From the NCBI GenBank assembly GCA_018806915.1, contig JAGKQI010000089.1, forward strand, positions 310,001 through 374,000: a DNA stretch of 64,000 nucleotides. Reading direction: 5' to 3'. Positions 11,208-57,451 of this stretch are shown piece after piece. This DNA comes from Phytophthora colocasiae (taxonomy: Eukaryota > Oomycota > Peronosporomycetes > Peronosporales > Peronosporaceae). The notes beneath the pieces are model-generated. The model was not told where the DNA came from, made no database searches, and saw nothing but the letters and a program-made list of their open reading frames with translations. A program made the position numbers and the translations under genes. Every line of letters begins with the position of its first letter. Within the stretch, counting starts at the first letter, position 1.

Positions 11208-13093
11208 TGTCGCGAAGTCGGTGCAACTTTTACCGCGGTGCAGGGGCGTACAGTGAACCTGGAAGTGTGACTACCGGTAATTATACCAGAGTCACACAGC
11301 AAGGTGGGCGTGTGTTACCTTGTGCTGTCCTCGTAGGTTCGTTGTCTTGGTAATGAGACCCTCGCCGGGGTCGTGAGAGTGTTGATGAGAGTGAGGGTTC
11401 CTTGCGTAGACCGTCGGATGTCCTTCTGGTCCTCACAGGAGCGCTTGGGAGTCGAACGTTTTCCGGTGAACACTTGTGTACACCAGAGACTTCTGGAGGC
11501 AAAAGAGAAATTAATACAATGGGAAGTCCAGTAATTAGACTTCCGAGATAACCGCAATATAGAGTTCCGATATACAAATATGTAGCTGCTCTTATTCTTT
11601 CCTGGCCCTTGAGCAGTGGGCTAGTTCTCCAGGTCAACTAGGGAAATGTTCACCAGACACCTGGTCTGTCTGGTATTCCCGTAACTTTCGCGCACCACCC
11701 TCTAATATATAGAGGGAAAATAAACCAATACACTATCAGTTATATAACAGTCTACCGAGCGTCTTGAGAGCGACTGTCTAGCTCCCAAAACCTGTCCAAA
11801 CGTACAATATGAAATGGGCTACCGCTAGAGACAAGACAAACGACCCAACTAGTAAATGGAATAGGTGGGTCCTCTCAGGTCTCTACGTTACGCTGATCTC
11901 CACCTAAAGGGGCTTGATAGGTGAGAGATCACACGACTCAAAGCTTTGTCGTGGCCTAGTACTTACGGGAAGCAGCAGGCAGACGACCTCGTTATAACAA
12001 AGCAAATCGAACTCGTTACAACAGGGAAAATTGAACTCTGGTTATCTATCTCGTATCTCTGTCTTCTGTCTTCCATATTCTCATATACACTTGGTCTCAG
12101 TATAACTCAGGAATCTTCACTTGGGCTCACTATGGTAGTCGATGCTGCAGATCTTGTCGAGTCGACACTTAATGATGTCATTACAGGATGAGCGGGTTGC
12201 GTTTCACTTGATTGCGTGAGGTCGTGTTGGGTACACTTGGTTTCAGTATGGGGTGGACTTCAGAGTGTCAGAGTCTGGTATCCTGTTCATCAGGGTCTGG
12301 AATCATGTGCGTCGGAGACATGTTCATCGGAACCATGTACTCCGGAATCATGTACATCAGAGTCATAAATACCAGAGTCGTGACACTTGGGTCTGTTCAT
12401 CGGAGTCTTGTACGTCGGAGTCTATTCATCGGAAACTGATAAATGTCTGGAATATTGCTTGTATAAGCCGGACACATCAGACTTGTTTACCGGAATCATG
12501 TACGTCAGCACGTCGGACTCATGTACGTCGGACTCATGTACGTCAGACTCATGTACGTCAGACTTCATGGTGTGATATCAGAGTTTCCATGCGTGATACC
12601 AGAAATCCATGAGTGTTTTTAGGGTGCGGAGCACGTATGCTGCAACGAACGAAGTCCAATCGGGATATGCGCGGGGTGCGCTACGTCCGGTGCGCGATAC
12701 TTGGTATATTGTGGGTATAACTGTATTCCTTGAACCATCATCGTCACACAGGACGGCAACGGGATGAGGTCTCTCAGAGATACATTCTTCTGAGAGACTT
12801 TCTGCCAACCTTTAGGCACTCATCGTCGGGGAAAGTCCGGTGATCAGACTGAGTGTTATTGTCTCTCGGAGTTTGTGCACTTTTCCGAGGAACACTTCTG
12901 ATCTCTTGGGCCCCTTTGCAGTACAGGTGAAGGTTAATATATGTAGCAGTTTTCTTCCACGGACCCATCATATTGTCACACGGGACATAACCTCGTCCCA
13001 CATCTCCCTTTCTCCCACAATCCAGTATATGTCCAATCACATCACAGCGTAACGTCCATATCCACTCAAAAAATCGTAATTAGCAACGTGTCA
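11208..13093 (-). repeat. 3' LTR of element A (1886 bp)
   Basis: Direct copy of 26838-28712. On the minus strand it starts TGACACGTTGC and ends CGCGACA. A cluster of family-A motifs (TGTACGTCGGA, TGTTCATCGGA and variants) lies at about 12318-12570, with one 15-bp unit more than in the other LTR. ORFs inside are not supported as genes. Confidence 0.95.
12318..12570. repeat. Cluster of degenerate family-A motifs in the LTR
   Basis: At least nine matches to TGTNYNYCRGA occur here, several as 15-bp tandem units of the type CATGTACGTCGGACT. The equivalent cluster in the other LTR lies at about 27952-28190. Copies of the same motif are scattered through the internal region. Confidence 0.8.
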
Positions 13094-13105: not shown

Positions 13106-13536
13106 GGTCATAATTCGTCAGTGCGGAACTTTCTCCAAACTGAGCATCATGGCCAGGACAGTACGTCAGAGGTCCCGTGAACATAGTGTAGCTGTGACGC
13201 TCTCAAAACTTCCGGGATTTCAGAATCTCTGGAGTCCTGTCGCTCAGTCTGATTCCATCAGACTCAGAAATAGCCAACTGTCGTATCCCACAAACGGCCA
13301 CATCCCGATTTCCTTTCTGACACACAAGTCAGAAGAAGATCCTGCAACGATGGGCTGTCCATTGGCTTCTACTAGTGGCAACGCCTCCCGCGTCGGCACC
13401 CACGGCATCGTGAGGTGATGATGGCGGTAATGCCGCGTCATCTGGAGGCAGCTCTAGCGCCCCAGCCTCACAGTCGAGCGCGTCCGCCGCTCCGAAGCAG
13501 GGCGTTGATGCTGCTGACGGCGATGGGCACGTGAAC
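13106..13536. other. Leader of the antisense ORF (element A)
   Basis: Plus-strand sequence from about 13372 (GTG GCA ACG CCT) translates to ATPPASAPTAS, then TGA at 13411, then an open frame. It resembles the start of the element B antisense protein (MATPSSASAS...), so the original start may have been here and was lost by ATG-to-GTG and a nonsense change. Translation may now begin at 13537. Confidence 0.45.
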
Positions 13537-16425
13537 ATGCCGGACACATCTATGGCTTCTGCTTCTGCGAGTCTTTCTTCTGGCGTCGCAGCCCCGTTCC
13601 CCAGAGGACCACACATCCTCTCTACCACCGAGGTGGACGATCTATTCGGCCCTGGACAGCAACCGTTGGACGAAGAGAAGTCTGACGTCCCTTCCGACTG
13701 GGTGGACCCTGAGCCACGACCTGAGGGACAGCCATTTCTGGTTGGTGTTCCGGCGCTCGCCGAGGACTTCCGTGTGGGCAACCACATCGCGAACATCTAT
13801 GGCGGACCCGGTGTTCTGGTGGGCCTTGAAGAGTTCACGTCGGCGGACATCTCGGAGCTTGAGCGTGTTATCCCTGACTTCACTGAAAGTCAGATGCTCG
13901 TTCCTCACGTGGATAGCCGTGACCGCCAGAACCTTGAAGCGCACATGGGGTCCGTCGATGTCCATCGGGAGTTGGCGTCAATCCTCCTGCACCTCCCTCA
14001 TCAGCGTCTCGCTGAGCGGGTGTACAAGACATCCGGCTATCTGAAGCAGATGGCCGGCGCTCACCGTCGGCTTCGACTTCAAGTTGAGTCCCAGGGCAAC
14101 ACATCTCTGGTGGACACGGCCGCTATCCAGAACGAGTCTGAAGATCTCAAGCGTCAGTGGGTCTTCAACTGCCAATATTGGCGTCATGAAGTGTTGGACG
14201 CCCGGCGTACTGCCAGTGAGACCGAAGATCGTGTGAACGCGGAGTCCAAGAACCTCGCGTCGCACTATCAGGACCAGATCGATGCCTTGGAAGCTGAGAA
14301 GTCGGCCTTGGAAGAACGCCTGGAGGACTCTCAAGCGGAGGTCCGGTTGCTGAAGGCTCGCCCCACGACCACAGCCACAGACTCCTGGGGTTTTCTGGAG
14401 TACTTATTTGAACACGGGGAGTTGAACGGCAGCTGGGTGCGTCTACGAGAGCTTCTGGCGAACTTCCAAGAAGACAAAGCACCTCCAGGAGACTGGGACA
14501 CCATTATCAACGTGACCGCGATGGATCAGCGCAAGGCGGAAATCCCTGACTTCTCCAAGCGTCTGGCGAAAGTTCGCTCCAATCAAGCTGCGGAGGCCAA
14601 GAAGTCAGCCAAAGTGCTGGATCTGACAGGTGCTGGCAGTGGTGTGAAGGTCTCCGGTGAACATGCGGGTGGCCCCGAGAAATCAGGCACTCGCCCGGTG
14701 AACAAGTCTGGGTCGCCCACCAGGTCGCCCAAATCTTCCGGATCTCCACCACTCAAGCCTAACCGGCCGTCTGGGAAACATCGGGTTCGTGTTCCTCAGG
14801 ATCGCCCCAAGAATTATACGCCTGGTATCGCTTCAGTGCGTCCGGCGAACGCCAAGTCTCTGGTGTCCAAGGACGTAGTTCACACCACGTTACCGGCTGG
14901 AGTCGTCTGGGAAGAAGTTCGTCCGGACTTGCGCTTGGCTCTGCTCGCCGGCATTTCTTACGAGACAGCGATGAAGTGGCTGCGCACGGACAAGCCCGCC
15001 CACAGCCTGTTCACGGGGCGCCCCTTGGTAAAAATGCTAGTGAGCATGATGTACTGGCGCAAGCTGAATCAGACCCCGTGGACTTCGTACGTCCCAGAGA
15101 CGTACTACAAGATGGCTGAGGAGGAACTGCGCCGGCTTCAGAAGAACGATGTGGAGCCACCGGTCTGGGAGGCACTGGATGCTCACGTCCCATATCCCAT
15201 CAGCGAGCCTGAGTCCACAGAGGATGACCCTCAGAAGGACCCGGACTTCAAGGAGTCTGGTGAACAAGAATCTGCATCCAGCGACAGCGAGTCTGACGAC
15301 GAAAAGTCGAGCGGCAACAGCGATGATTCCGACGACGATGAGTCTGATGATCATTCGCACGCTGGCAACAAGCGTCCACGGGACTACGAGTCCAGCGACT
15401 CGGATGACTCGGGTCCAATAATCCCCACCAAGAAGTCCAAGCGGGATAGTGTGCACGAAGCATCCCGATCCAAGTCAGGCAGTCAAAAGTCCGGTGGCAC
15501 CTCCACGTCAAGTCCCAAGGGCAAGAAGTCCGGTGGTTCGCCCAAGTCAAGTTCCAAGGACAAGAAGTCTCAAGACTCCAAGTCAACTAAGAGTTCTTCG
15601 GGCAAGCGACCTTCTGGTAAACTCCGGAAGTCAAGTCTGGTGTCCAAGTCGTACAAGTCGCTGACACCGAAGGAGCTGCTGACAATCGAGGCCCCGGACA
15701 CGCATTGTTCTTTGTGGCTGTACTACGGCATTCCGGTCCAGCCGACAAGTGACACCAAGACGTCCATCAGGCAGACTCCAGGGTTCCCAGACTTCGAGCC
15801 CCACAGACACAGTCTGGCACGCCTCAAGAAACGCTGGAACTCCAAGAAGTACCAAGCTTTGCTGGACGAAGTGCCAGCTCCCTGGGAAGTCATGTACCAG
15901 AACCGTCGGACCGAACTGTACTTTCACCGGCGTGAAGACCTCTGTCCCTTGGTTCAGGCGGACATCGAAGAACTCGCGTCTCTCATGCGCAAGAACGCCC
16001 AAGCGCTATGGGAACGCACTCACTGGGTGATCATGGACCCCGACGAGGACCTGCTGTCCGGTGAACAACACAAGGAACGTGGGCTCCGACGTGCATCGTT
16101 ACTGCGCCAATATCGAGGGGCAGTGTCCAAGATTCTGAAGCACAAGGATTTCCCGGAGACACTCATGTTCGAGCCCGGTATCTGGAAGGTCCCGGACAAA
16201 TATTGTCCATGGATCTGGCAGGACCCACGTGCACGTGACATCGGAGGTCCCAAGTGCCTGAGCTTGCGCAAGCAACTCGAAGCTATCGACTCGGCGGAAC
16301 CGGCGCGCACGCAGTGGGCCACAGCGTCTGCCGACAAGGACTGGATGCAATACGTGCCATCCGACCTCCGGAAAGAAGCTCTGACGCCCGCTGAACGCGC
16401 CGAAAATCCTGTCTCTCTGAAGTAA
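13537..16425 (+). CDS. Conserved antisense ORF of element A, about 963 aa, unknown function
   Basis: An uninterrupted frame lies opposite to gag-pol, between the 3' end of pol and the 3' LTR. Seen in order: Ser/Ala-rich start; conserved segment around residues 75-120 (ALAEDFRVGN, YGGPGVLVGLEEF); helical segment (RELASILLHLPHQRLAERVY); coiled coil at about 226-275; 'SWVRLRELLANF'; basic Ser/Pro/Lys-rich linker; a Trp-rich segment with WLRTDKPAHS and MLVSMMYW; an acidic Ser/Asp stretch; a Ser/Lys/Gly-rich basic stretch; and a C-terminal domain of about 240 aa (LWLYYGIPV, FPDFEPHRHS, HWVIMDP). The same order of segments is found in the antisense ORF of element B. No known domain is recognised. 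The basic regions and coiled coil suggest a nucleic-acid-binding oligomer, which is inference. Transcription would have to start in or near the 3' LTR. Confidence 0.85.
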   Translation: MPDTSMASASASLSSGVAAPFPRGPHILSTTEVDDLFGPGQQPLDEEKSDVPSDWVDPEPRPEGQPFLVGVPALAEDFRVGNHIANIYGGPGVLVGLEEFTSADISELERVIPDFTESQMLVPHVDSRDRQNLEAHMGSVDVHRELASILLHLPHQRLAERVYKTSGYLKQMAGAHRRLRLQVESQGNTSLVDTAAIQNESEDLKRQWVFNCQYWRHEVLDARRTASETEDRVNAESKNLASHYQDQIDALEAEKSALEERLEDSQAEVRLLKARPTTTATDSWGFLEYLFEHGELNGSWVRLRELLANFQEDKAPPGDWDTIINVTAMDQRKAEIPDFSKRLAKVRSNQAAEAKKSAKVLDLTGAGSGVKVSGEHAGGPEKSGTRPVNKSGSPTRSPKSSGSPPLKPNRPSGKHRVRVPQDRPKNYTPGIASVRPANAKSLVSKDVVHTTLPAGVVWEEVRPDLRLALLAGISYETAMKWLRTDKPAHSLFTGRPLVKMLVSMMYWRKLNQTPWTSYVPETYYKMAEEELRRLQKNDVEPPVWEALDAHVPYPISEPESTEDDPQKDPDFKESGEQESASSDSESDDEKSSGNSDDSDDDESDDHSHAGNKRPRDYESSDSDDSGPIIPTKKSKRDSVHEASRSKSGSQKSGGTSTSSPKGKKSGGSPKSSSKDKKSQDSKSTKSSSGKRPSGKLRKSSLVSKSYKSLTPKELLTIEAPDTHCSLWLYYGIPVQPTSDTKTSIRQTPGFPDFEPHRHSLARLKKRWNSKKYQALLDEVPAPWEVMYQNRRTELYFHRREDLCPLVQADIEELASLMRKNAQALWERTHWVIMDPDEDLLSGEQHKERGLRRASLLRQYRGAVSKILKHKDFPETLMFEPGIWKVPDKYCPWIWQDPRARDIGGPKCLSLRKQLEAIDSAEPARTQWATASADKDWMQYVPSDLRKEALTPAERAENPVSLK

Positions 16426-19800: not shown

Positions 19801-22543
19801 AATTTAGACTTCCCATGAAACTCTGTACTCCCTTGAGTGTCGACGGAAACGGCAATTCTTCCACTCCCTTGACGATCTTCGGTGTAGCTCTCAGTCCTTC
19901 AGCACTGATCTCATGCGACAGATAAGGAATCGTCAGCTTCCCGAACTCGCTCTTGGGCAAGCTCACAGAAATGTTCCAGTATCTGAGTCTGAAAAGCAAG
20001 GCGTTCAAGTCTTCACAAAGTTGATCCCAGGTGGGCGCCCCATGAGCAATGTCGTCAATGTAGGAACTTCGACCGAGTACCGGTCCCATGAAGGACGGGA
20101 CTGGGATGTTCCTCTGAAAGACAGTCATTTGGTCGGTGAGCACCGGAACCTCTGGGATGTGTTCATCAGAGTTCTGAAGTTGTTCACCGGACATCAGACC
20201 ATGTACGTCAGAGTTCTGGGGTTCTAACTTCAGGAATTCCAGCACATCGGGGTCAACGTCGGCTTCTTCTTCGGGTGACAGTCGCACAAACCCCCACAGG
20301 CAGTTATCCAGCATAGCCTGGTACACCAGAGGGGCGTTCTTTAGACCAAAAGGCATTCTTACCCACTGGAAGTGTCCAAATGGGCAGATGAACGCTGAGA
20401 TCAGTCTTGCACGCTCCGTCATTCGAATAGCCCAAAAACCACTCGCCATATCCAGACTCATAAACCACAGTGCCGCCTCAAAACCAATCAACAGATCGTC
20501 TATCAGGGGCAACGGATAACGCGACAACTGGATAAAACCATTCACCACTCGATAATCAATGCACATGCGTATGTCCACACCATTTTTCTTGAGAACAATC
20601 ACAATTGGTGATGCCCAAGGCGAAGTCGAGTACTCGATGAGTCCGGTCTCCAGGAGCTTCTTCAGAAGTTCGTACACCTTGATCATCAGGTGAGGGGCAA
20701 CGGACCTCGGACGCTGGGCGACAGGTTTAGCGTCTCCCACGTCCAAGTCACAGACCACGCCCCTTGCCGGGGCAGGTGCGGCATTGCCGTCTCCCAGAAA
20801 GATTTTCCGATGATACTTCAGAATGTCCCTGAGTTTCTTCTCCATCTCTGGCGTTGTTTTCCCGGGTACTCCGACGTCAGCCTTGTCGATATCGCATTCG
20901 GGAGTCAGATCTTCCAATTCAGGCAGCATAGCCAGTTGGTCACGTAATTGAGAGAGTAGGTCCGTTCCTTCCCGTATGTAGACACCGGGTTCCAGATCCA
21001 ATTCCTCATTCGTGACTCGCATGCACCGCTCGTACTCAGCTCGGAGCTTTTCCACAGGGGTGCCTGGCATACTCTGGATTGGGATGTCCCATGAACAGTC
21101 TGTCGGATCCTCATCTCCCATGGACAGTTCACCAGAAACACTCAGGGTGACTTCATCCTTGACAATGTTAGTCGAAATTTCAGACGTGTTTCCGGAGTCT
21201 TTCGGAGTCGTTTTCTCTGATGACAATCCCAGATCTCCGGTGTCCACAGCGGTATCTCGGGTCTCCTCTTTTCCGGCATCCACCCAGTCATCTGTCTGCA
21301 TAGCCACATCCAAAGCGAAACGAACTTGTTTTGCTCGTGGGACCGAAGTAGGCCTCACAAACTGTACTCGAGCATTATCCAGCCTTGGGCGTTGTAAGAT
21401 CTTAGTTGGCCACGGGTATACCGGGTGATCCACACACGGAGGTTGAGGCATCAAGTCCTCCAAGTCAGCTTCGGCCTTCAGGCGTCTCTTCGTCTCTGGT
21501 GACGGAGTGTTCTCCAGAATCAAAACTTCCCAGTCACGACAGGCTGCAGAGCCTGGCCGTACAAAGCGACCATGTCGTGGGAAAAATCCATACTCCACAA
21601 TCCTTGCGACGTCAGAAAATTCATTCACCCACGTATTCTTGTCAGAAATGTTCACCACGCGCACCGCCACAGGCAATGACCGGGCTGCATAAATCAGCTG
21701 AGTCACCCAACGGTCTCCACGTCCCGCCCACACGACTTCTCGTTGTGGGTTCGTCGGACCATAGTCAATGCGAACAACGAATTCTTCACCAGGCCTCAGG
21801 AGTACAGCTTCACTTGGTCTGATGGACCTGTTCCTGCCGATATGATCACCGGGCTCCCAGCTGCACATCATCACCACGACTTCGTCTGGCATAGATACCA
21901 GTCCCTCACGAACGCTGATCCTCAGACCAGCGGCGAACATGAATCCCATTCCCAATAGCACGTTTATACCTTCGCCGATATTCGCAACCCAGACATCAAC
22001 AATGTAAACCACTCTCGGTCCGAGAGTCAGCTTGATCTCAGCACTGGCACCAATGTACGTCGGAACACCTCCAATCCCAGACACTCTTGTTTGTTTGTGT
22101 GACTTGAGCCTGAGTCCGAACTTACGCGCAAAGTCGTAACTCAGGATGTTGATAGTCGCACCGGTGTCCAGGAGAATCTTGGTCCGATGATCATTGACGG
22201 CGCCATGCACCATAACCACATCACGCTTTGCAGGATTAGGGTAGTGATCCTCCCACCAGCCATAACATTCCCCGTCTTTCAGACGAAACTGGATCGTGTC
22301 GTCCGGAGGCGGTTCATTGTCTCTCGGAAAGTCCGGTGGACAGTCTCTCGGAAAGTCCGATGAACTGTCTCTCAGACGCGGAATTTCTGAAGACATGGCT
22401 GATTCTTGAGCTAAAGCGGTCATGCAATGTTGATTTTTAGGTTGGGTTGTTTTCAGCTCCGGTCCTACGTACACTAGAACACATAACTCTGGGGGTGTGC
22501 CTTGCCCGGCGCGTTTCGGATCCCCATCCGACGGGCTTGCTAG
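16811..22543 (-). CDS. pol: pol polyprotein of element A (protease-RT-RNase H-aRNase H-integrase-chromodomain)
   Basis: A single open frame of about 1900 codons lies in -1 frame to gag. Residues below count from the codon at 22474. Protease: LLDTGATINIL at about 103. RT: SLDMASGFWAIRM at about 673 and catalytic SYIDD at about 805, with a long insertion before it. First RNase H (about 950-1030) keeps AEKEVIAIL, but the usual aspartates are replaced (PHANPWAASAV, YTRHSVLKW). A second RNase H at about 1105-1235 has intact LSFDGAAK, VNDSEYCGL, VVGDSRIAI and NQAADYLTSK. Integrase: H-H-C-C zinc site at about 1427-1467, then catalytic MDFV (D1496), RHDQDPRF and QANGQQERS. A GPY/F-like segment and a C-terminal chromodomain (YLVKWKGYDETEWLPLSKL) follow; the latter would direct integration to marked chromatin. 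No frame break was seen. Confidence 0.95.
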   Translation of the reverse strand, partial: LASPSDGDPKRAGQGTPPELCVLVYVGPELKTTQPKNQHCMTALAQESAMSSEIPRLRDSSSDFPRDCPPDFPRDNEPPPDDTIQFRLKDGECYGWWEDHYPNPAKRDVVMVHGAVNDHRTKILLDTGATINILSYDFARKFGLRLKSHKQTRVSGIGGVPTYIGASAEIKLTLGPRVVYIVDVWVANIGEGINVLLGMGFMFAAGLRISVREGLVSMPDEVVVMMCSWEPGDHIGRNRSIRPSEAVLLRPGEEFVVRIDYGPTNPQREVVWAGRGDRWVTQLIYAARSLPVAVRVVNISDKNTWVNEFSDVARIVEYGFFPRHGRFVRPGSAACRDWEVLILENTPSPETKRRLKAEADLEDLMPQPPCVDHPVYPWPTKILQRPRLDNARVQFVRPTSVPRAKQVRFALDVAMQTDDWVDAGKEETRDTAVDTGDLGLSSEKTTPKDSGNTSEISTNIVKDEVTLSVSGELSMGDEDPTDCSWDIPIQSMPGTPVEKLRAEYERCMRVTNEELDLEPGVYIREGTDLLSQLRDQLAMLPELEDLTPECDIDKADVGVPGKTTPEMEKKLRDILKYHRKIFLGDGNAAPAPARGVVCDLDVGDAKPVAQRPRSVAPHLMIKVYELLKKLLETGLIEYSTSPWASPIVIVLKKNGVDIRMCIDYRVVNGFIQLSRYPLPLIDDLLIGFEAALWFMSLDMASGFWAIRMTERARLISAFICPFGHFQWVRMPFGLKNAPLVYQAMLDNCLWGFVRLSPEEEADVDPDVLEFLKLEPQNSDVHGLMSGEQLQNSDEHIPEVPVLTDQMTVFQRNIPVPSFMGPVLGRSSYIDDIAHGAPTWDQLCEDLNALLFRLRYWNISVSLPKSEFGKLTIPYLSHEISAEGLRATPKIVKGVEELPFPSTLKGVQSFMGSLNYYNKFIEDLPVIAAVLYELSDEQIRAGRDLARAKEAFEILKRKIVSTPLLRHPDRTRPFVIIPHANPWAASAVLGQEYDGVIHPVRFTGRVLNEAELRYHIAEKEVIAILRVLENFRALVNTSPVITVYTRHSVLKWLLSSSSADGRNVKWGLKLSHWNLEIRRIQRDEDGLPAILEAGITPREHLDEVSENLIPVKGRVKPPAPISVEMLEADYRGCVLSFDGAAKTSTRLGSCGCVLWELPGWNILEAQGFALKDVTVNDSEYCGLINGLKLALERGIRDLVVVGDSRIAIQQAQGLINCNQPNLQRKLAEFESLKIKFQSLKLVHVKREFNQAADYLTSKTLVLGESWQVQDPDELTHLKLVSKIPEKLMKPPEGVSSEAPDDVHQTSGEHDCTPEMDDPGPESAPLPHAAKVLVAITRARNQEEANVPDDAEAREPMGPLEFQEERWRRIKVHQTQDVHLAELIKFLKGDVRDLPRPRVRKLARIADDFILDSRDVLYRLSRATRERPRDMVDELRLVFPRDLHADMLHYAHGDYQGAHQGIKRTFEKLSSEFYWIGMYADVERFVKECMDCASGKGRPPNPGPSPGNIEPSRPFEVVSMDFVTHMPKSARGNTFLLLFQDMFSGYVMCKPMSITTAQDVAEAYEERVFRNFGASSLIRHDQDPRFMSEVFRCFRDLLGSRQRATLAYRPQANGQQERSVQTVVRAIKAYIAEADQSDWDDHAERLMFALNTSFDATRLETPFFLVHGWDVHGTVSAMLGPKPSGVQERTAYEWRRKMQRDYSYAQACAEELQKKAKRERSEEQTRKWKELSERLKSGFAVGDAVWLYIPKVQTGLSRKLAHMWHGPFRIEEMLDDFRVKLKVEDTGYRVNPWVHISRLKPRALFPRRPTVELDVHEDDDFDTALLPEDSWEPDTENDEYEVEKILDTRWSKRTRTSKRLREYLVKWKGYDETEWLPLSKLNCGALLYEFNQSARARARFQAMQAGDDHPRV

Positions 22544-22549
22544 TTTAAC
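22490..22549 (-). promoter_or_regulatory. Programmed -1 frameshift signal at the gag-pol junction, element A
   Basis: Minus strand G TTA AAC (22549-22543) is immediately followed by the gag stop TAG (22542-22540). Six bases after the heptamer a stem-loop starts: GCCCG (22536-22532) pairs with CGGGC (22508-22504), and TCGGAT (22531-22526) pairs with ATCCGA (22521-22516) around a GGGG loop. Eight bases after the stem is CCCCC, which could pair with the loop as a pseudoknot. GUUAAAC is a known -1 slippery sequence in nidoviruses, and the six-base spacer is canonical. pol is in the -1 frame as required. Confidence 0.8.
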
Positions 22550-25500
22550 TGTTTCCCAGAGTCAGCCTCGTCACCCAGGAGTCTCTCCAGTAGGTGATCC
22601 GGCAGGTCCTTCAGTGTACCTTGACGGGCTAGTTTCTTGAGGGATTCCAGAGTCTTGATGTCTTCGCATGGTCTCCCAGAGTGCACCTTTCCGCAAACCT
22701 CACACGGCGGTACTCGGCACATCCTGCTCGGGTGACCTTTCTCCTGACATCTGTCGCAGACAATGTCCCTCCAGCAGTTTTCTTCTGAATGGCCTGAGCG
22801 ACGACACTTCTCGCAGAACTTGTTCCAGTAGTCAGGGTTATCGCGCCGTGTCTGCTGGAAGTCTTGACCTGACGCTCCTCGGGGAGACTGGGGTGGCGGT
22901 CGCCATCCCATGTTGTCCATGACCCGATAAACTTCGTATGTCAGAGTCTGAGTCCAGTCAGCACTACCAGGCGCCTGAGAGGCAGATTGTACACCAGACG
23001 AAGATTGTACACCAGACGTCTCGCGATCATGTTCTGACGACGAGGCTCTGGTATCCTTTTCTTGAGTTCTGGTATCCGCGTCGACACCGTCAGAGGCACC
23101 CGGGTCTGCTTCTCGGGCAACGTAAGTCTTCCCCATACGCTTTGGCTTAAACTGTCCGCGTGGGAGATTGTCCGCTCGGAAATCCCGATGTCTGGTGGTC
23201 GTAGTGTCTTGATCAGCAGTTCGCCAGACATCTTCGTCCTGTTGCAGAGCATATTCCAAGTCCGAGATACTCCTGAACTTCCGGCCTTGTAACGCGATCT
23301 TCAGACGCTCGTCCTTCAGCTTGGTGATGTACCTCAGAACGTGTTTCTCCAGGCGTCTGGAGGACTTTCTGAAGTCCACCTCAGCTTTTCCGGCGGCCGA
23401 GTTCAGGCGATAGAAGAAGTCCAACGGAGTCTCGGAACTCTTCATTTCCATCGTGAAATATCTCTCGGAGTATGATGTCCGGGCCTTGCAATAACGCCTG
23501 CGGAACTCCGATGATAACTCCTTCCAGTCACGGGAAACGCTCTTCGGAAGCTGGTTGAACCAATCTCTGGCAGACACCGGAAGCTTCAACTTGAGTTCCT
23601 GTATGCGGGTCTTGTTCGTCCACGCTCCCTGAGATGCCATGTTCACGAAGCGCTCCCACCAGTGAACACGCTCCCGTAATGTCGCTCGGGGATCAAATTC
23701 TCCGATGATACTTGAGTTTATGAAGGGCCTCATAGTCAACAGGGTCGCTCCAGCTTGTCCCTGGGACGCAGAAGTCAGGTTTACAACCTCCGGAGGATCC
23801 AAGTCATCAGAAGACGAGTCACTTGAGTCCGAGCTTGAGTCACTTGAGCTTCCACCCGGGTCTGGGTCATTCCTGCGTCTTCCAGGCCTTCGAGGAGCGT
23901 CCCGGCCATCTTCAGAGCGTCTTTCGCTTGGTTTCCGGTGTCCTTCGCGCCTGGGAGTCGCTGGGCGCCTTCCTTCAGTCTTGATCTCGGTCAGGGGAGC
24001 CGCTTGAGCCGTCTGGGTCGTCGTAGCGGCCGCGGTGGCCGCGCCATGCCTTCCAGCCTTCGCGCGCTTGGTGTCGGTCGATCTCCGTAAGGGAAGAGGC
24101 GTATGGAAGGCCTCCGTCGTTTTAATGGGTGTAACCCTACCCCTGCTGGCGACTCCTTCTGATCCCCTAACCCCAGGTGTGCGTATCCCGACTGTTCACC
24201 AGAAGTCCGGTTGCCGGTTTAGGGTCATGTTCACCGGAGATCCGACTTGAAGTTGCTACTTCAGGGTGGGCGACCCCTTGAACTTGGGACAATGTTGCAC
24301 GAAGGTTCCTCAATTCTGCGGCCTGGAAACGCTGCATGTTCTGGGAACTTTCTCGCTCCCTGTCGCGCTCCGACTCCACGTCGTGTACCCGCTGTCGTAA
24401 GGTCTCCATTTGCGAAATCCAGTCACGTTTCAGCTCGTCTGCCCAACGCGCACGTTCGGCTTCGGCCTCGGCTTCCCGTTGTTTCCAGCGATCTGCAAAC
24501 TCGGTCTCCAGACGCTGTACGTCGGAAAACTGTTCACCAGAAACTTGTACGTCGGACACCTGTCTCTCAGACGATTTCGAATGATACCTGAGCTTAGACT
24601 CTGACGCTTGACTCCGACGTCCTTCCAAGTCATCCACGCGTCTCTGGGCTTCCAGTCTGGCGCTCTCAGACTCAAGTAGTCGGTCGGTAAGTGTCTGGAT
24701 CTGTTGGCGCGTATCAAGTTCCCGTTGTTCACGTCGACGTTCACGCTCCATGGACTCCAGACGTTCTCTGGCCAGAAATTCCTTCTGCTCCTGTTCCATC
24801 CGACGCTGCCATTCCTGTTGCTGCCGCATAGCGTTCAGTTCGATCTGCGCTGGGCCTGATCTCTGGGAACTTCGTGTGTGGCTTGACGCAACGGAACTCA
24901 GGCGTCTGGAAGATACTTTCTGGTGATCCTCGCTCTTCAGACTCTGGTGCCTGCTCTGGTGGCTTCTCCCACGACTCGAGACGGACGATGATGGAGCTTC
25001 TGGCGTCCGGTGAACAGAATCTCTGGTAGACAACTGTCTCTCGGACTTCACTTCTGGAAACTCCGGCTTCTCTTCCAACATCTCGAAGTCTTCAGGCTCC
25101 GACTTCACCGGCATCAGTGTTCGTGTCACGTGGATTCCCATAGACTCTCCGGCGACCATTCCTCCGGCATCAGAACCTTGGGCGATCATCGCCAGACCTC
25201 CGACGGACAACGGCATATGTGCAGACGCCCCTCGACTCATGGACATCAGCGACGAGTCTGTGGAACTTCCACGAGAGGTCTGGAGTCCCGACGAGTGGTC
25301 ATCCGACGTACGCGAGGTCCCGATGACACTTGGCACCGGCGCATCAGTCGTCAGAGAGCTACCTCGATCTTCAGACATTGGCACACCAGACTCCAAGTGG
25401 GTGCCATCAGAGTGACTCTCGTATACCGGCAGTGAACTCAGCGACGGCGTCGACAGCGCAGATGGTGTCGACGAGACTTGCGGGCGCGGCGGACCATGCT

Positions 25501-26745
25501 GTAGGCGCTTGGACTGCGGCGGTTCTCCACTGCTGGACCCGTCGGAACTATGTGTGACTCTGAGTCCGGTCACCCGGAGTCTCATAATCAGCTGTCGTCC
25601 TTGTAGGTCAGCCTTCTCATCGCGTAATATACCATCAGCTTCGCCTTGACGTGCTTCATTGCCTACCTTTGTGTCTTCTGGGAGTCGATTGACCTGTGAC
25701 CTGGCGGTCACAGTGGCCCACTCAACCAGTTCTTCAGCAAGTCGGCTCTGAAGCTCCGTCGCCACACTGCGCACTTGAGGTTCGAAGATAGCAGACGCTT
25801 GGGTCTGAGACCACCTCGGTAGCAGGTTCTGGAACTCAAATCCTGCTTCATACAGCATCGTCTGAAGGACAGCGACGCACTCGGGTGCCGTCAGAGTATT
25901 CATCGAGATCTCGACATACGACAAGTCTTGGATTCGGCCAAAACTATGGCGCCTCAAGCAGAACTCCGATATCCACATGTCTTCGGGGAATACTGAAGAA
26001 CACCGCCACTTGATGTAGTCGCCCGTTGCTGCCGCAGCTTTCTGAAAGACATTTGCGTCAGGCTTCGCTGTTCGCCAGGCGTATTCGACGTTCGGCGGAA
26101 CAATTCTTCCAGCGTCCATGTCCCTCCAGCGGCGGAACTCACGGCGTACGTACTTCAGGGCACGTTCTCCATCCAGCGAATCGGCCCTCCCAGACTCATC
26201 AGACGGTGTCTTCAGAGAATCTTCGGACTTCATCGGCATGTCATCAGACATCGGAGTGTCTTCGGACTTTGGAGTCTTCGAGACACGTTCATCAACCAGT
26301 CCGGGTTCCGTCTTCACTTCCCCCACGGACTTCCCAGAAGTCGTCGACTCAGAACACAAGTCAATGACCTCCGGGGACTCATCCACGTCGGCGCCTCCCT
26401 CAGACGCCTCATCACCACCCTCACGGGCAGTGGCCACCTCGTCACCAGAAGCTTAGCTTCGGACGGACCCTCCTCAGAACCTTGTTCGCCAGACACATCG
26501 GGTGTCTCTTGGGCTTCAGGCTCCGCAGCAGGCTGGTCCTCGACCGCCGGTTCCGGGACGTTCACCTCCTCGGCTGCTTCCTTTTCACGTGCAGCCTTCC
26601 TCTTCTCGCGTGCCGCCTTCTGAACAGCATCCAAGTCGGGTTGTTCGTCAGGCGGAAGACCTTGAAGACGCTTCGACTGACGTGTCGCCATACTGCGACC
26701 ACCGCGTCCCCGACGTCCTCCTCTTGTAGTTCCATGTGAAGCCAT
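22540..26745 (-). pseudogene. gag: gag of element A, about 1400 codons, two frame breaks
   Basis: Starts at ATG 26745 (MASHGTTRGGRRGRGG). A Lys/Arg- and acidic-rich head is followed by a frame change at about 26450, then a domain (YVRREFRRWRDMDAG, SAPECV-like 'TAPECVAVLQTMLYEAGFEF') shared with element B, a Ser-rich middle, and a long Arg/Glu-rich coiled coil (about 24850-24350). A second frame change near 24180 leads to basic and Ser/Asp-rich linkers, the canonical retrotransposon gag domain (VHWWERFVNMASQGAW, FRRRYCKARTSYSERYF) and two CCHC knuckles plus a third Cys cluster (CEKCRRSGHSEENC, CDRCQEKGHPSRMC). Most Ty3/Gypsy gags are 300-500 aa, so this is exceptionally long. It ends at the frameshift signal. 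Confidence 0.85.
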
Positions 26746-26837: not shown

Positions 26838-28712
26838 TGTCGCGAAGTCGGTGCAACTTTTACCGCGGTGCAGGGGCGTACAGTGAACCTGGAAGTGTGA
26901 CTACCGGTAATTATACCAGAGTCACACAGCAAGGTGGGCGTGTGTTACCTTGTGCTGTCCTCGTAGGTTCGTTGTCTTGGTAATGAGACCCTCGCCGGGG
27001 TCGTGAGAGTGTTGATGAGAGTGAGGGTTCCTTGCGTAGACCGTCGGATGTCCTTCTGGTCCTCACAGGAGCGCTTGGGAGTCGAACGTTTTCCGGTGAA
27101 CACTTGTGTACACCAGAGACTTCTGGAGGCAAAAGAGAAATTAATACAATGGGAAGTCCAGTAATTAGACTTCCGAGATAACCGCAATATAGAGTTCCGA
27201 TATACAAATATGTAGCTGCTCTTATTCTTTCCTGGCCCTTGAGCAGTGGGCTAGTTCTCCAGGTCAACTAGGGAAATGTTCACCAGACACCTGGTCTGTC
27301 TGGTATTCCCGTAACTTTCGCGCACCACCCTCTAATATATAGAGAGAAAATAAACCAATACACTATCAGTTATATAACAGTCTACCGAGCGTCTTGAGAG
27401 CGACTGTCTAGCTCCCAAAACCTGTCCAAACGTACAATATGAAATGGGCTACCGCTAGAGACAAGACAAAACGACCCAACTATTAAATGGAATAGGTGGG
27501 TCCTCTCAGGTCTCTACGTTACGCTGATCTCCACCTAAAGGGGCTTGATAGGTGAGAGATCACACGAATCAAAGCTTTGTCGTGGCCTAGTACTTACGGG
27601 AAGCAGCAGGCAGACGACCTCGTTATAACAAAGCAAATCGAACTCGTTACAACAGGGAAAATTGAACTCTGGTTATCTATCTCGTATCTCTCTGTCTTCT
27701 GTCTTCCATATTCTCATATACACTTGGTCTCAGTATAACTCAGGAATCTTCACTTGGGCTCACTATGGTAGTCGATGCTGCAGATCTTGTCGAGTCGACA
27801 CTTAATGATGTCATTACAGGGATGAGCGGGTTGCGTTTCACTTGATTGCGTGAGGTCGTGTTGGGTACACTTGGTTTCAGTATGGGGTGGACTTCAGAGT
27901 GTCAGAGTCTGGTATCCTGTTCATCAGGGTCTGGAATCATGTGCGTCGGAGACATGTTCATCGGAACCATGTACTCCGGAATCATGTACATCAGAGTCAT
28001 AAATACCAGAGTCGTGACACTTGGGTCTGTTCATCGGAGTCTTGTACGTCGGAGTCTATTCATCGGAAACTGATAAATGTCTGGAATATTGCTTGTATAA
28101 GCCGGACACATCAGACTTGTTTACCGGAATCATGTACGTCAGCACGTCGGACTCATGTACGTCGGACTCATGTACGTCAGACTTCATGGTGTGATATCAG
28201 AGTTTCCATGCGTGATACCAGAAATCCATGAGTGTTTTTAGGGTGCGGAGCACGTATGCTGCAACGAACGAAGTCCAATCGGGATATGCGCGGGGTGCGC
28301 TACGTCCGGTGCGCGATACTTGGTATATTGTGGGTATAACTGTATTCCTTGAACCATCATCGTCACACAGGACGGCAACGGGATGAGGTCTCTCAGAGAT
28401 ACATTCTTCTGAGAGACTTTCTGCCAACCTTTAGGCACTCATCGTCGGGGAAAGTCCGGTGATCAGACTGAGTGTTATTGTCTCTCGGAGTTTGTGCACT
28501 TTTCCGAGGAACACTTCTGATCTCTTGGGCCCCTTTGCAGTACAGGTGAAGGTTAATATATGTAGCAGTTTTCTTCCACGGACCCATCATATTGTCACAC
28601 GGGACATAACCTCGTCCCACATCTCCCTTTCTCCCACAATCCAGTATATGTCCAATCACATCACAGCGTAACGTCCATATCCACTCAAAAAATCGTAATT
28701 AGCAACGTGTCA
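26838..28712 (-). repeat. 5' LTR of element A (1875 bp)
   Basis: Pairs with 11208-13093. Differences seen by eye: a few single-base changes or indels (for example in CTCTCTGTC, CAGGGATG, GACAAAACG) and one missing 15-bp motif unit. It carries the promoter and the start of the element RNA, but no TATA box or start site is assigned. Confidence 0.95.
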
Positions 28713-41234: not shown

Positions 41235-42217
41235 ATGCCAACTAGCTACAAGAGATACCCCCTCCACATTCGGGCAGCAGTATTGCGTGTAGCCAAGGGC
41301 GAAGGCAACTGGAAGGAAACGTACGATGTTGGTGAGCGCACAGCATGGGGGTGGATAAAGGCTGCTAAGGAGTCTGGCGACTGGAGTGGCAAGCAGAAAA
41401 AGCGTGGTGGATTGGAGAAAAAGATACTTCCTGAGCACGTGGACTACATTCTCAACGAACTAGCCACCACACCAGAGCTACCGTGCGTCGACATGGCGAG
41501 AATGATCGACCAGAAGTTTGGTGTGAAGCTAAATCGCGAAACGGTTCGCCGTGAACTCGACGCTTGCAATTTTACTGTAAAGAAGCTCCACCGTGACGTG
41601 ACAACGCGCAATAGCCTAGTCAACAAGCAGAAGCGAGCAGACTACGTGGTCAAGTTCTACGCAGCGCTAGCAAACAACAAGACGGTGTTCTATCTGGACG
41701 AAACCAACTTCAATTTGTGGTGTTCACGTGGGACTGGATGGAGCGCACGCGGCACCTGTGCCGTACAGACTGTCGTCGCTAGCAAAGGCAGAAACATTCA
41801 CGTAATTGCAGTGATATCGAGTACTGGGATTGCTTACCAAGAGTCGCAGTTTGGCTCCTTCACTGCAGACCTAGCCAACGAGTTCATCCGGCGCTTCTTG
41901 CGTCACATCAGAGTGACACATTCGCTGGAAAATGTGGTGGTGGTGCTCGACAATGTGCCGTGTCACGCTCGCGCCGATGCCATTTTCGATGAAGAAGAAT
42001 TCGACGGTGCAGAAATGCTAAAACTTGGGCCTTACTCGCCAATGTTGAACCCAATTGAGAACGTTTTATCCGTCTACAAAAGTGCAGTCAAGCGTTTTCT
42101 TGCACGGCAACGACCTGCCATCATACGTGTACCGGCAGGAACAACGATTACAGAGCACCGCTCTGAATTTCTTAAGATGGCTGCTGACCCTCTCTTTGCG
42201 GAGGTGGTAACACCAGT
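41235..42217 (+). pseudogene. Tc1/mariner-type transposase, main part (interrupted near its C-terminus)
   Basis: ATG at 41235 opens a frame of 327 codons up to the CCAG target site. The N-terminus has a helix-turn-helix (RAAVLRVAKGEGNWKETYDV, ERTAWGWIK) that would bind the TIRs, then the catalytic core: 'VFYLDETNFNLWCSRG' (first D), 'VVVLDNVPCHARA' (second D) and 'GPYSPMLNPIENVLS' (E), with 35 residues between the second D and the E. The last 27 codons lie beyond element B at 58970-59052 and keep the frame, so the gene was intact when B inserted. In the present DNA the frame ends inside the LTR at 42221. Confidence 0.92.
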
Positions 42218-43730
42218 GTGAAGATGTGGCCCCAGTTTTTACGGAGTAAATACCCCAGCTACGCTCTGATTGGCTCTGAAAGTACTATATTGGGACGCTG
42301 CGAGCCAAGGAGGATTGAATGGACGAAATAAATGTGGATTCCGGAGAGCTCAGGCGAAGTCAGTCCAAGATCTCCAGTTGGGACTCCAAGTGGTATATGT
42401 CCGGTTGGACGTACATACTCAAGTCAAGTGATTTCCTGGACTGCCGCCTTCTGCCCAGTTGACAGTTACCTGATTTCGAGATATTGGAGTTACTTTTGGA
42501 TGTCTAAGTGGAAGATGGCTGTTTGGATTGAACAGGTCCAACCGGACCAGTCCAGATTTGTACCCAGAGTCCAACCGGATTAGCCCTGATTTGTACCCAC
42601 AATCGGCCGTTGAAGATCCGACCATACTAGACCCAAGTGTTTTCCGACCGACCAAGACGACCGACCATGATCTGTTCGGCACAGCTGGAATTCGGCCATG
42701 TTCTTCGGTGTTCTTCGGATGTGTCAGGTCGCCTCCGGATAAGCACGCCTCTACCTATAGTGAAACCAAGTCTATTTTGCATGTTTAGCTTTACAACGGA
42801 TAGTTATATATTAAAGAGAGTTCAATTTGCCACCAAGGGCGCAAGTGGAAGAGCGGGAGGTTTCCCATAAGCCACCACTATGAGCACTGCCGACCAGCCT
42901 CGAAGTCGAGGGCTCGAGTCAGCGAACAAGCGTCAGGCCGCGTCGACTATCGTCACCGCCGCGTGAATCTCCGCCAGGTTAAGACCAAGTTGGGGAGGTG
43001 ATCCGGGCGGCGATTCCTGGGCGTGACCCTCCCATTTCATATCCCAGTTGGACATTCCAAAACGGTCGTTTTGTTTGTACATTTCATATTACAACTGCGT
43101 TTTAGGAGGTTATTAGTAGTCACCCCTGAAATTGATTGATTGACTGCTGTGTGATTGGACTGTATTTGTGTGTGTGTATTTTGGAGTGCTCTATAGTATT
43201 CCTGGTATACTTGGATAATTGTCTTCTGGGAGTCCAAGTGGACTTGCCAGAAGTGGTGCGCTAAAGGACCCCGGGATTGTGCCAGTGTCCCGGTTGGAGT
43301 GTCCAACGTCGTACTGGCATTTGGAGTGCCCACCGCTCAAGGGCCGGAAAGAATAAGAAGCGGCTGTATATTTGCATTTAACTCTCTTGTATATTGGTTA
43401 TCTGTTGTTGGAAGGCTTTGCTAATAGTCTCTCACCTGCATTCAGACTCAACCACTGCATTTGGAAGTGCATTAGCACTCTACATCTGGATCCAGTCAAG
43501 CTTTTGGAAGTAACTCATCCAGGTGGAACTCCTCGCGTTCGAAGACAAACGACACCTACGAGGGTAGTCACAAGGTCACACGCCAACCCTCTTTCCGGAT
43601 ACCCATTTGGATCCCGGTTGGAGGTTCTGACTTTCGTTAGTCTGACCGGACATCTTTCTAGTCGGAGTTATTTTTCGGAAGACACGCTATACGCACCTGG
43701 GCGGGAAAAGTGTTCACCCACTTCGCCACA
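42218..43730 (+). repeat. 5' LTR of element B (1513 bp)
   Basis: Pairs with 57452-58965. Contains the family-B motif TCCAACYGGA on either strand at 42400, 42537 and 42570, plus many near matches. LTR-internal ORFs occur in both copies but have no support as genes. Confidence 0.95.
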
Positions 43731-43732
43731 GC

Positions 43733-43750
43733 TGGTGCGCGTGCCCGGAT
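43733..43750 (+). promoter_or_regulatory. Primer binding site of element B
   Basis: TGGTGCGCGTGCCCGGAT follows two bases after the 5' LTR and is identical to element A. Here the tRNA-like complement continues through the T loop (ATTCGAA) and the other T-stem strand (CCGAG) to 43760. The primer tRNA therefore has 3' acceptor strand CACGCGC and T arm CTCGG-TTCGAAT-CCGGG. Confidence 0.9.
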
Positions 43751-43836
43751 TCGAACCGAGGATATCACCGAGTTATTTTTATATTTTGATTAGTTTCGGG
43801 GTTTGAGTACTAACTAACTTTCTGATCGTGGTTGTT

Positions 43837-46800: not shown

Positions 46801-48152
46801 GCCGTCCTCCACCCGGAGGAAGAGATACTCCGACGATGATCCAAGTTCTTCCGGTTCGAGTTCGAGTTCGAGTTCGAGCAGTGATTCTGACTCTGGAAGC
46901 TCCGATAGCAGCTCGTTTGAAGACGCAACTCCGGGACTCACGACAACGACTGGTCCGAATGGGACGACTACGTACCTGTTCAAGCCTTTCGTAAACGCAA
47001 GCACGTTGGAAGACTTCGACGAGAAGGCCGCGTTGTCCAACCGGATGCGCTGGTTAGAGCGATTTCAAAGTATGGCGGTTCAGGGCGGCTGGGCGGACAA
47101 TGTCAAGATCTACGAAATGAAGTTGAAGATGTCCCCGGCTGTCCGGAATTGGCGTGCGAATTTGGACTCCAAAGTGCGTCGGAAGTGGAAGCCCTTCTTG
47201 AAGGCATTCCGAGAGCGATATTGCAAGGCGAAGACTTCGGATGCGGAACGCTATTACACGATGATTCAAAAGAAGTCGGAGACCCCGTTGGAGTTCTACT
47301 ACCGGTTGAACAAGGTGGCGGACAGAGCGGGTATTGAAACCGATGGATCGAGTAAGCGCCGCGAAGACCATCTGAAGGTTTTCATGAAGAAGCTTTTAGA
47401 CTCCCGCCTCCGGACGACACTCCAAGGTCAGCGTCTCCGAAGTCTGAAGGACGTCGAGTACGTCTTGAAACAGCACGAAGACTTGAATTTGGATGACGAC
47501 TACGATACCCCTCCTCCAAAACGGGACTTCCGGCGGACAATGTGTCCCGTGACAAACTCCGGTTGAAGCGGTCCGGACGGGCATATCTCACTCGGAGTGA
47601 CGATACTTCGGACGATGATGACCGTCATGTGACGTTCCAAGAAGATGAAGCCACAACCACTCCGGGAAGCGAATGCGACTTCGGACACTCTGAACTCCGA
47701 GAGTTCAAACGTCACTTTTCCAACTATGGATGATCTTTCGGACGCAGTGTTCAAGATCCTTCAGGAAGGTGGATGGAAGTCTCGAAGTCCGAATGACCAT
47801 ACGGATTCCGGACGTCAAGCGCCATCCGACTCCAAGCGACAAGGATTCCGGAATCCGAATTACTCCGCGAGATATTGCGAGAATTGCCGGGGCTTTGGAC
47901 ATGTCAAGGAAGATTGCTGGGCGGACATTGAATGTGAAAGATGCCATCGAAAGGGACATCCGCCCCGCTTCTGCCGGACTCGACAGTGTGAATTCTGCAA
48001 CAAGTATCATGAAGGACCGTGTGGAGAGTTCAAGGCGTTCCAAGATATCAAGAACCTGATCCGACAAGGTGCGCTTAGACATACCGACTGCCATCCGGAA
48101 CCAACTTTTGGATCCGGAGGACAATTCAGGGGAACAGCCGTCAAACCAATAA
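43837..48152 (+). pseudogene. gag: gag of element B, about 1430 codons, several frame breaks
   Basis: ATG at 43837 (MTGSETTREGRGDAS, then 'MATRASRRLKGQQPEEHEDL'), homologous to the start of the element A gag. After a frame change in 44006-44274 comes a long open frame to 47566. It holds an acidic stretch, the shared domain (YVADQVRRWERDG, 'SPRECIAVLQTLLFEAGFGF'), Ser-rich linkers, charged helices, poly-Ser, and the canonical gag domain (RMRWLERFQSMAVQGGWADN, FRERYCKAKTSDAERYY). Frame changes near 47530 and 47700 precede the knuckles (CENCRGFGHVKEDC, CERCHRKGHPPRFC, CEFCNKYHEGPC). One extra base between about 48080 and 48140 puts the knuckles in the pol frame; without it, gag would end at TAA 48150-48152. 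Confidence 0.85.
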
Positions 48153-48196
48153 GCCCGCTGGATGGGGATCCAGAACGCGCCGGGCTGAAGAAACCC
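48140..48196 (+). promoter_or_regulatory. Gag-pol frameshift element of B, counterpart of that in A
   Basis: G TCA AAC (48140-48146) is followed by CAA TAA, then stem GCCCG (48153-48157)/CGGGC (48181-48185) enclosing CTGGAT (48158-48163)/ATCCAG (48168-48173) with a GGGG loop and the bulge AACGCGC. CCCCCC lies eight bases after the stem. Compared with A, two base pairs of the inner stem have changed on both sides, while loop, bulge and spacing are the same. The heptamer has C where A has T, so efficiency may be reduced. Confidence 0.75.
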
Positions 48197-57439: not shown

Positions 57440-57451
57440 GAGAGGGACGGT
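57440..57451 (+). promoter_or_regulatory. Polypurine tract of element B
   Basis: GAGAGGGACGGT abuts the 3' LTR, matching AGGAGGGGCGGT of element A in position and in the final CGGT. Confidence 0.75.

What the first reader, a model, noticed from the sequence alone, without database searches (positions are those of the whole stretch)
13537..16425. Long antisense ORF between pol and 3' LTR, intact in element A
A frame of about 963 codons opposite to gag-pol is free of stops and homologous, segment by segment, to the antisense ORF of the distant element B. Extra ORFs, some antisense, are known downstream of pol in plant Tat-lineage elements such as Grande, but I do not recognise this protein. Both copies share a coiled coil, basic linkers and a C-terminal Trp-rich domain.
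Basis: partly seen in the sequence, partly recalled or inferred. Interest (0 to 1): 0.85.

Follow-up and report, generated by a model that had tools for sequence, protein, structure and literature searches.

The report
Conserved antisense gene in oomycete retrotransposons
A family of giant jumping genes in a Phytophthora-like water mould carries an extra, backwards-reading protein gene that evolution has clearly kept working, echoing an unexplained arrangement seen in some plant jumping genes.

Summary
Window 13531-16425 (+) is a 964-codon frame opposite to gag-pol of a 17.5-kb Ty3/Gypsy element with the dual RNase H and chromodomain of oomycete 'Chronos' elements. It is a real gene: 47 own-genome matches, 30 without a stop. 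In 30 of 30 copies read, it lies between opposite-strand pol and an LTR. Pairwise dN/dS is 0.11 in its frame. Variants shared by two or more copies fall 92/64/374 on codon positions 1/2/3. Relatives occur in P. capsici, P. palmivora and P. ramorum (41-48%). Four other families of this genome carry divergent versions. Correction: A is not fully intact; the family's ATG (13350) is out of frame with the rest, and B's C-terminal domain is out of frame too. An oomycete INR+FPR-like motif sits 34-55 nt before the ATG in five families. No Pfam family fits, plant TRP28 included; AlphaFold models are poor. Best reading: an accessory, probably nuclear, coiled-coil protein made from its own antisense promoter, analogous to Grande GENE23, not shown homologous.

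The parts
11208..13093 (-). 3' LTR of element A (the antisense gene begins just inside it)
   Evidence: 98.8% identical to 26838-28712 over 1890 columns; TG...CA ends and 4-bp flanking CTCC on both sides
26838..28712 (-). 5' LTR of element A
13298..13313 (+). INR+FPR-like core promoter motif of the antisense gene
   Evidence: 2 mismatches to YCAYTYYNNMWTTTNC, starts 52 nt before the ATG; similar place in 4 other families; 2-3 mismatches in 30 of 30 family-A loci; consensus from PMC3599244 passages
13350..13352 (+). Family start codon of the antisense gene; in this copy out of frame with the ORF downstream
   Evidence: ATG found in 30 of 30 loci; frame open from the ORF up past it in 27 of 30, not in this copy
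13531..16425 (+). Antisense ORF, 964 codons open, the given finding
   Evidence: purifying selection
13606..13890 (+). N-terminal conserved region D1 (aa 26-120)
   Evidence: dN/dS 0.075; alignment
13891..14370 (+). Helical region with long coiled coil (aa 121-280)
   Evidence: modelled helix 193-280, pLDDT 75-86 for residues 231-270, lower elsewhere; dN/dS 0.100
14881..15210 (+). Central conserved domain D2 (aa 451-560), mostly helical in a low-confidence model
   Evidence: 39% identity to B over 111 aa; dN/dS 0.088
15211..15630 (+). Acidic then basic Ser/Lys-rich linker with NLS-like KRPR (aa 614) and KKSK (aa 634)
15631..16422 (+). C-terminal Trp-rich domain D3 (aa 701-964)
   Evidence: dN/dS 0.066; conserved in L035-L037 and P0001-P0003
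16811..22474 (-). pol: protease, RT, RNase H, second RNase H (RVT_3), integrase, chromodomain
   Evidence: rve below its cut-off, Integrase_H2C2 above
22540..23802 (-). gag-like ORF; two CX2CX4HX4C knuckles seen by eye
   Evidence: no Pfam hit at 0.01
24167..26437 (-). ORF1 (upstream of gag), 756 aa, unknown
54858..57392 (-). Antisense ORF of element B, 844 aa; out of frame after about 55120
54344..55120 (-). C-terminal domain of B's antisense gene in another frame
   Evidence: 31% to A aa 700-958, E 4e-36
57108..57123 (-). INR+FPR-like motif of B's antisense gene
   Evidence: 3 mismatches, 34 nt before inner ATG 57089; on its own unremarkable (21.6% of random windows do as well)
42217..58965 (+). 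Element B (LTRs 42217-43730 and 57452-58965; pol 48690-52946; chromodomain ORF 52983-54023)
   Evidence: 99.1% LTR identity; Pfam

Best explanation
The ORF is a protein-coding accessory gene of Chronos-like Ty3/Gypsy elements. It is transcribed against gag-pol from its own promoter just inside the 3' LTR (oomycete INR+FPR core, then ATG). It makes a soluble protein of about 1000 residues: a low-complexity N-terminus, a conserved N-terminal region, a long coiled coil (self-association), a central helical domain, a charged linker with NLS-like clusters, and a Trp-rich C-terminal domain. Shown here: coding, purifying selection, fixed place and orientation, presence in five families, relatives in other Phytophthora. 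Inferred: use of the promoter, oligomerisation, nuclear entry. Most likely role: an oligomeric nuclear adaptor or regulator that acts in trans for the element, controlling transcription from its LTR or helping the pre-integration complex and chromodomain integrase at chromatin, and that can be expressed independently of the gag-pol promoter.
For: 47 own-genome matches scored, 30 without stop. 30 of 30 fetched copies have pol on the opposite strand downstream and an LTR upstream. ORF-frame dN 0.025, dS 0.231, ratio 0.109; the other five frames hold a median of 13-40 stops. Shared variants by codon position 92/64/374. Ordered regions 0.05-0.10, linkers 0.11 and 0.23, N-tail 0.59. Relatives in P. 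capsici, P. palmivora and P. ramorum at 41-48% aligned identity and in P. citrophthora at 78% over 42%. Four other families: L035-L037 with open frames of 1018-1087 aa and pol opposite, and element B. Core-promoter motif in five families, summed mismatches 10, reached in 0 of 20,000 random draws. Long helix. NLS-like clusters, no transmembrane-like segment in the two proteins checked. Grande GENE23, also antisense between pol and 3' LTR, is reported as nuclear with its own promoter (PMC7264820 passages).
Against: No transcript, protein, localisation or binding data. Both structure models are poor (pLDDT 48, pTM 0.24-0.25), so the domains have no fold assignment. No Pfam family over cut-off for A or B; among the 11 members the best E-value is 7e-4 (TPR/MLP1, one member); no PDB sequence below E 0.042. 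NLS-like clusters occur by chance in Lys/Arg-rich linkers. The five families share ancestry, so the motif counts are not independent, and the inner ATG used for the B-type families was my choice. The gene evolves faster than pol's end (0.121 against 0.048). 17 of 47 matches have stops, and the window copy and B are frame-broken. The share of related pols that lack the gene could not be measured: the own-genome pol search did not complete.
Confidence: 0.6

Rival explanations
1. Copy-number or self-silencing control: the antisense protein, or dsRNA from the overlapping antisense mRNA, limits the element's own activity; the coding constraint would be on an inhibitory protein.
For: The antisense mRNA would overlap the 3' part of the genomic RNA; PMC7264820 discusses dsRNA and siRNA as a possible role of such transcripts (passages). 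HBZ of HTLV-1 and Ty1 p22 come to mind as self-limiting products (recalled, no call).
Against: An RNA-only role cannot give codon-position-specific conservation (92/64/374) or dN/dS 0.11. Copies that lose an inhibitory protein should gain in the short term, yet 30 of 47 matches have no stop.
Confidence: 0.18
2. A structural or particle protein (second capsid-like, envelope-like or movement protein) made from a separate mRNA.
For: Between A and B it diverges about as much as gag and ORF1 (antisense 23-39% by segment, gag 38%, ORF1 27%, against pol 53-67%).
Against: No transmembrane-like stretch (maximum 19-residue hydropathy 0.79 in A, 1.16 in L036); no BLASTP similarity to gag or ORF1; charged low-complexity linkers with NLS-like clusters.
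Confidence: 0.12
3. A nested transposon or captured host gene that merely hitchhikes with the element.
For: Antisense orientation and own promoter are what an inserted cellular gene would have.
Against: Same place in 30 of 30 family-A copies and in L035-L037; A is outermost in both the antisense and the pol-end comparison, though the closest pair differs (L036-L037 for antisense, B-L035 for pol's end); selection persists within family A. The 47 scored matches (of 1347 first-look candidates) are 86-100% identical, so no distant stand-alone host gene appeared among them.
Confidence: 0.06
4. Chance open frame mirrored by coding on the other strand.
For: Overlapping reading frames can be open by codon bias; frame -1 shows a low apparent dN/dS of 0.179.
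Against: The opposite strand has a median of 13, 31 and 22 stops in its three frames; 1003 codons against a simulated maximum of 479.
Confidence: 0.01

Closest known systems
Chronos Ty3/Gypsy elements of oomycetes (Ustyantsev et al. 2017, PMC5348765; abstract and passages seen)
   Same: Dual RNase H, integrase followed by chromodomain, Peronosporales-type host.
   Different: The paper's held main text does not use the word antisense; supplements were not seen. Another paper notes chromodomain-bearing oomycete elements outside Chronos (PMC11541908, one passage), so the clade assignment needs a tree.
Grande GENE23 and Retand/TRP28 antisense ORFs of plant Tat-lineage elements (PMC7264820 passages; PMC11963269 abstract, passages and Discussion)
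   Same: Long ORF antisense to gag-pol between pol and 3' LTR, kept in most copies, own upstream promoter (Grande).
   Different: No TRP28 (PF04195) match in any of 11 members; different kingdom; host element has a chromodomain; protein is about 1000 aa with three conserved blocks. No direct sequence comparison with GENE23 was made.
Antisense genes of deltaretroviruses (HBZ of HTLV-1; name and role recalled, antisense promoter in the 3' LTR named in PMC7264820)
   Same: Antisense gene at the 3' end of a provirus.
   Different: The HTLV promoter lies in the 3' LTR; here the motif is internal; no sequence relation is claimed or tested.
Boty of Botrytis and Sclerotinia (named in PMC7264820 passages)
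   Same: Non-plant element with an antisense ORF between pol and 3' LTR.
   Different: Fungal; not compared here by sequence.

Membership tests
Chronos (oomycete Ty3/Gypsy) | Dual RNase H (native plus second) after RT | tested here: met
   RT_RNaseH 1.6e-21 and RVT_3 9.5e-19 in A's pol; 6.8e-20 and 9.8e-18 in B
Chronos (oomycete Ty3/Gypsy) | Chromodomain C-terminal to integrase | tested here: met
   Chromo 1.6e-7 in A, 7e-7 in B's ORF 52983-54023, both over the cut-off
Chronos (oomycete Ty3/Gypsy) | RT tree placement in the Chronos clade; archaeal-type second RNase H; loss of native RNase H catalytic residues | not tested
   No tree with named Chronos references was built; other chromodomain oomycete lineages exist
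Plant Retand/Tat antisense TRP28 proteins | ORF antisense between pol and 3' LTR | tested here: met
   30 of 30 copies of family A; pol opposite in L035-L037
Plant Retand/Tat antisense TRP28 proteins | TRP28 domain (PF04195) | tested here: not met
   Not among the 14 families matched at E <= 0.1 by the 11 members of A2. The genome search had no ringing control and is uninformative
Grande GENE23-like accessory genes | Own promoter just upstream of the antisense gene | tested here: inconclusive
   INR+FPR-like motif in five families; no transcript data
Grande GENE23-like accessory genes | Nuclear localisation | not testable with these tools
   NLS-like clusters only
Retroviral or plant env-like ORFs | Transmembrane segment, sense orientation | tested here: not met
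   Maximum 19-residue hydropathy 0.79 (A) and 1.16 (L036); antisense

The most novel reading that the evidence does not exclude
[quoted passage not shown] This would point to a shared functional need in which the two additions go together, and the oomycete protein, a new family, would be a self-encoded chromatin or targeting factor working with the integrase chromodomain.
Probability: 0.35. Interest if true: 0.78.

Novelty: new variant of a known kind. Interest (0 to 1): 0.62.

Why it matters
Antisense genes between pol and the 3' LTR have been an unexplained feature of plant Tat-lineage retrotransposons. Here the same arrangement occurs in oomycete elements of a type already noted for converging with the plant ones in RNase H, with a protein that shows no relation to TRP28, clear coding selection and a recognisable core promoter motif. 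That makes the function testable in a second lineage and gives a new, multi-copy, unannotated protein family of Phytophthora genomes.

Tried and rejected
Rejected: chance ORF; coding on the opposite strand; RNA-only role; envelope-like protein; descent from gag or ORF1 (no BLASTP match). The - strand frame -1 also shows a low apparent dN/dS (0.179) but holds 28-33 stops; I read it as the frame whose third positions face those of the gene (inference).

Led nowhere: PDB sequence searches (none at E <= 1; 18 at E <= 5, best 0.042, mostly coiled coils); Pfam; AlphaFold models (pLDDT 48), for which I ran no fold search because low-confidence models give meaningless matches; viral-contig scan (15 pattern matches, none a relative); PF04195 in the genome (the control rang nowhere). 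My first script on the 30 loci left minus-strand loci unturned; its counts were discarded and redone. One search's arbitrary palindrome served only to obtain the genome handle. A tRNA scan of the window found none.

Not achieved: how many related pols lack the antisense gene.
Full report
WHAT IS THERE. Element A runs from 11208 to 28712 on the - strand: LTRs 11208-13093 and 26838-28712, 98.8% identical, TG...CA ends and a 4-bp flanking repeat. Its sense ORFs are ORF1 (24167-26437), a gag-like ORF (22540-23802) and pol (16811-22474) with protease, RT, RNase H, a second RNase H (RVT_3), integrase parts and chromodomain. Dual RNase H plus chromodomain are the traits given for Chronos elements of oomycetes (PMC5348765; abstract and passages). 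I built no RT tree, and other chromodomain-bearing oomycete lineages are mentioned (PMC11541908, one passage), so I say Chronos-like. The finding's ORF, 13531-16425 on the + strand, 964 aa, lies between pol and the 3' LTR and reads the other way. Element B (42217-58965, + strand) has the same layout, with its antisense ORF at 54858-57392.

IT IS NOT CHANCE. The longest open frame in 13094-16811 is 1003 codons; 500 Markov-1 simulations gave at most 479. The own genome (92.5 Mb, 105 contigs) gave 47 scored matches to the protein, 86-100% identical, 30 without a stop and 17 with one to four; some matches are partial, and the tool calls such counts lower bounds. Of the 47, 30 loci were fetched (L005-L034) and all 30 used. 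In all 30, pol lies downstream on the opposite strand and an LTR match lies upstream. 20 of 30 have no stop in the matched stretch; 27 of 30 read open past the place of the conserved ATG, the exceptions being L005 (the window copy), L024 and L028.

IT IS A CODING SEQUENCE UNDER SELECTION. In the 30 copies, variable sites whose minor base occurs in two or more copies fall 92, 64 and 374 on codon positions 1, 2 and 3; singletons fall 101, 77 and 155 (962 codon columns). Over all 435 pairs the mean dN is 0.025 and the mean dS 0.231, ratio 0.109, on 932 gapless codons. The other five frames contain a median of 13 to 40 stops; four of them give apparent ratios of 1.6-2.6, and frame -1 gives 0.179 with 28-33 stops. 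Among simple biallelic codon variants, those shared by copies give 0.039 (27 nonsynonymous, 212 synonymous) and singletons 0.200 (65, 100), as expected if selection acts on the source copies and relaxes after insertion. As a yardstick, pol's last 363 codons, in the 21 of 30 loci with a full ungapped match, give 0.048, against 0.121 for the antisense gene in the same loci, so the antisense protein is less constrained than pol's end. By segment, all 30 loci: D1 0.075, coiled-coil region 0.100, the following region 0.049, D2 0.088, D3 0.066; linkers 0.232 and 0.107, N-tail 0.585.

DISTRIBUTION. A protein search found six relatives, all Phytophthora (P. capsici, P. palmivora, P. ramorum; only the 7989 candidates sharing most words were scored), 41-48% identical in alignment; one P. 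capsici cluster holds 30 member sequences. An alignment search added a second P. ramorum protein and a P. citrophthora protein of 464 aa, 78% identical over 42% of the query. Its contig length (1,042,558) equals that listed for a P. citrophthora pol of 86% identity, so they probably share a contig (inference). Where the relatives of other species lie with respect to their pol was not seen, for want of their DNA. In the own genome B's ORF gave 57 match rows at 39-100% identity. Of ten loci fetched from that list, I read pol in the three whose stretch reached it; all three (L035-L037) have pol on the opposite strand and open antisense frames of 1018, 1062 and 1087 aa from the first ATG. The other seven were listed for open frames only; by the ends of their frames six resemble L035 or L037, L040 ends early, and at least L041 and L042 are split over two frames (by eye). 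So at least five families (A, B and the L035, L036 and L037 types) carry it. Between families the antisense proteins are 26-54% identical while pol's C-terminal end is 81-90%. Over the whole element A and B also differ much in gag (38%) and ORF1 (27%), with pol at 53-67%, so fast divergence is shared with the other non-pol proteins. A is outermost in both the antisense and the pol-end comparison, but the closest pair is L036-L037 for the antisense protein (54%) and B-L035 for pol's end (90%).

CORRECTION TO THE FINDING. The family's start is an ATG at 13350 in the window; P. capsici relatives begin at a similar place, by eye. In the window copy that ATG lies in another frame than the ORF, and its frame stops after 22 codons; the ORF frame is open for only 39 codons upstream of 13531. 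B's ORF loses its C-terminal domain, which continues in another frame at 55120-54344. Copies open throughout exist elsewhere in the genome.

PROMOTER. Oomycete core promoters carry INR (YCAYTYY) and FPR (MWTTTNC), sometimes as a 16-nt supramotif with 2 nt between (PMC3599244, passages). The best match within 100 nt upstream of the ATG has 2, 3, 3, 0 and 2 mismatches (A, B, L035, L036, L037), starting 52, 34, 34, 34 and 55 nt before the ATG; the reverse strand gives 4-5. In 20,000 random 100-nt windows of the two elements, 2.7% have 2 or fewer mismatches and 21.6% have 3 or fewer; none of 20,000 draws of five reached the observed sum of 10. So B and L035 alone are unremarkable; the set is not. 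All 30 family-A loci keep ATG and motif with 2-3 mismatches. The families are related, so these are not five independent events. In the B-type families an open frame continues above this ATG, so their start is uncertain; I chose the inner ATG by similarity to A.

PROTEIN. No Pfam family passes its cut-off for A or B; weak hits fall on the coiled coil. Among the 11 aligned members the best E-value is 7e-4, TPR/MLP1 in one member, then YL1 nuclear protein at 1e-3 in one; cut-offs were not shown there. No PDB sequence relative: none at E <= 1 for A, best 0.042 for the profile. AlphaFold gave pLDDT 48 and pTM 0.24 for the whole protein (11 sequences) and 48 and 0.25 for the two C-terminal domains of L036 (20 sequences). 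Only residues 231-270 of the long helix 193-280 reach pLDDT 75-86. No transmembrane-like stretch; NLS-like KRPR and KKSK in A, KRKR and KRRR in L036. No BLASTP similarity to ORF1 or gag.

HOW IT LIKELY WORKS. Shown: a coding gene kept by selection in a fixed antisense place. Inferred: its own promoter lets it be expressed separately from gag-pol; the coiled coil lets it oligomerise; the charged linkers take it to the nucleus, where it regulates LTR transcription or assists integration complexes. [quoted passage not shown] By the test available it is not a TRP28 protein. The likeness is one of arrangement.

NOVELTY. Literature searches (listings) showed no report of an antisense gene in oomycete retrotransposons. 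Seven papers hold the words Chronos, oomycete and retrotransposon; I looked into four by word search. Three of them do not contain the word antisense in the held main text (PMC5348765, PMC10508981, PMC11541908); the fourth, on a brown alga, uses it for small RNAs in the passages shown and mentions a gene on the opposite strand in a DNA transposon, not in Chronos (PMC12477816). The library holds only openly licensed papers and I saw no supplements or Repbase entries, so prior description there is possible. [quoted passage not shown]

Noticed in passing
44006-47566 (+) and 22540-26437 (-): B's ORF1 of 1186 aa carries gag at its end (A's gag residues 24-209 match B's 992-1176, 46%), after roughly 990 further residues partly related to A's separate ORF1: an unusually large N-terminal extension of gag with no Pfam match at 0.01.
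   Followed up: partly
43733-43761: B's primer binding site (29 nt just inside the 5' LTR) looks complementary to a tRNA 3' end well into the T arm, longer than the usual match; A shares its first 18 bases. The tRNA was not identified.
   Followed up: no
2681-4459 (-): ORF of 592 aa with a PIF1-like helicase domain (E 1e-70), possibly part of a Helitron.
   Followed up: no
30395-40366 and 60595-62737: Several long, near-identical direct and inverted repeat arms (up to 980 nt at 98%), probably nested copies of another element.
   Followed up: no
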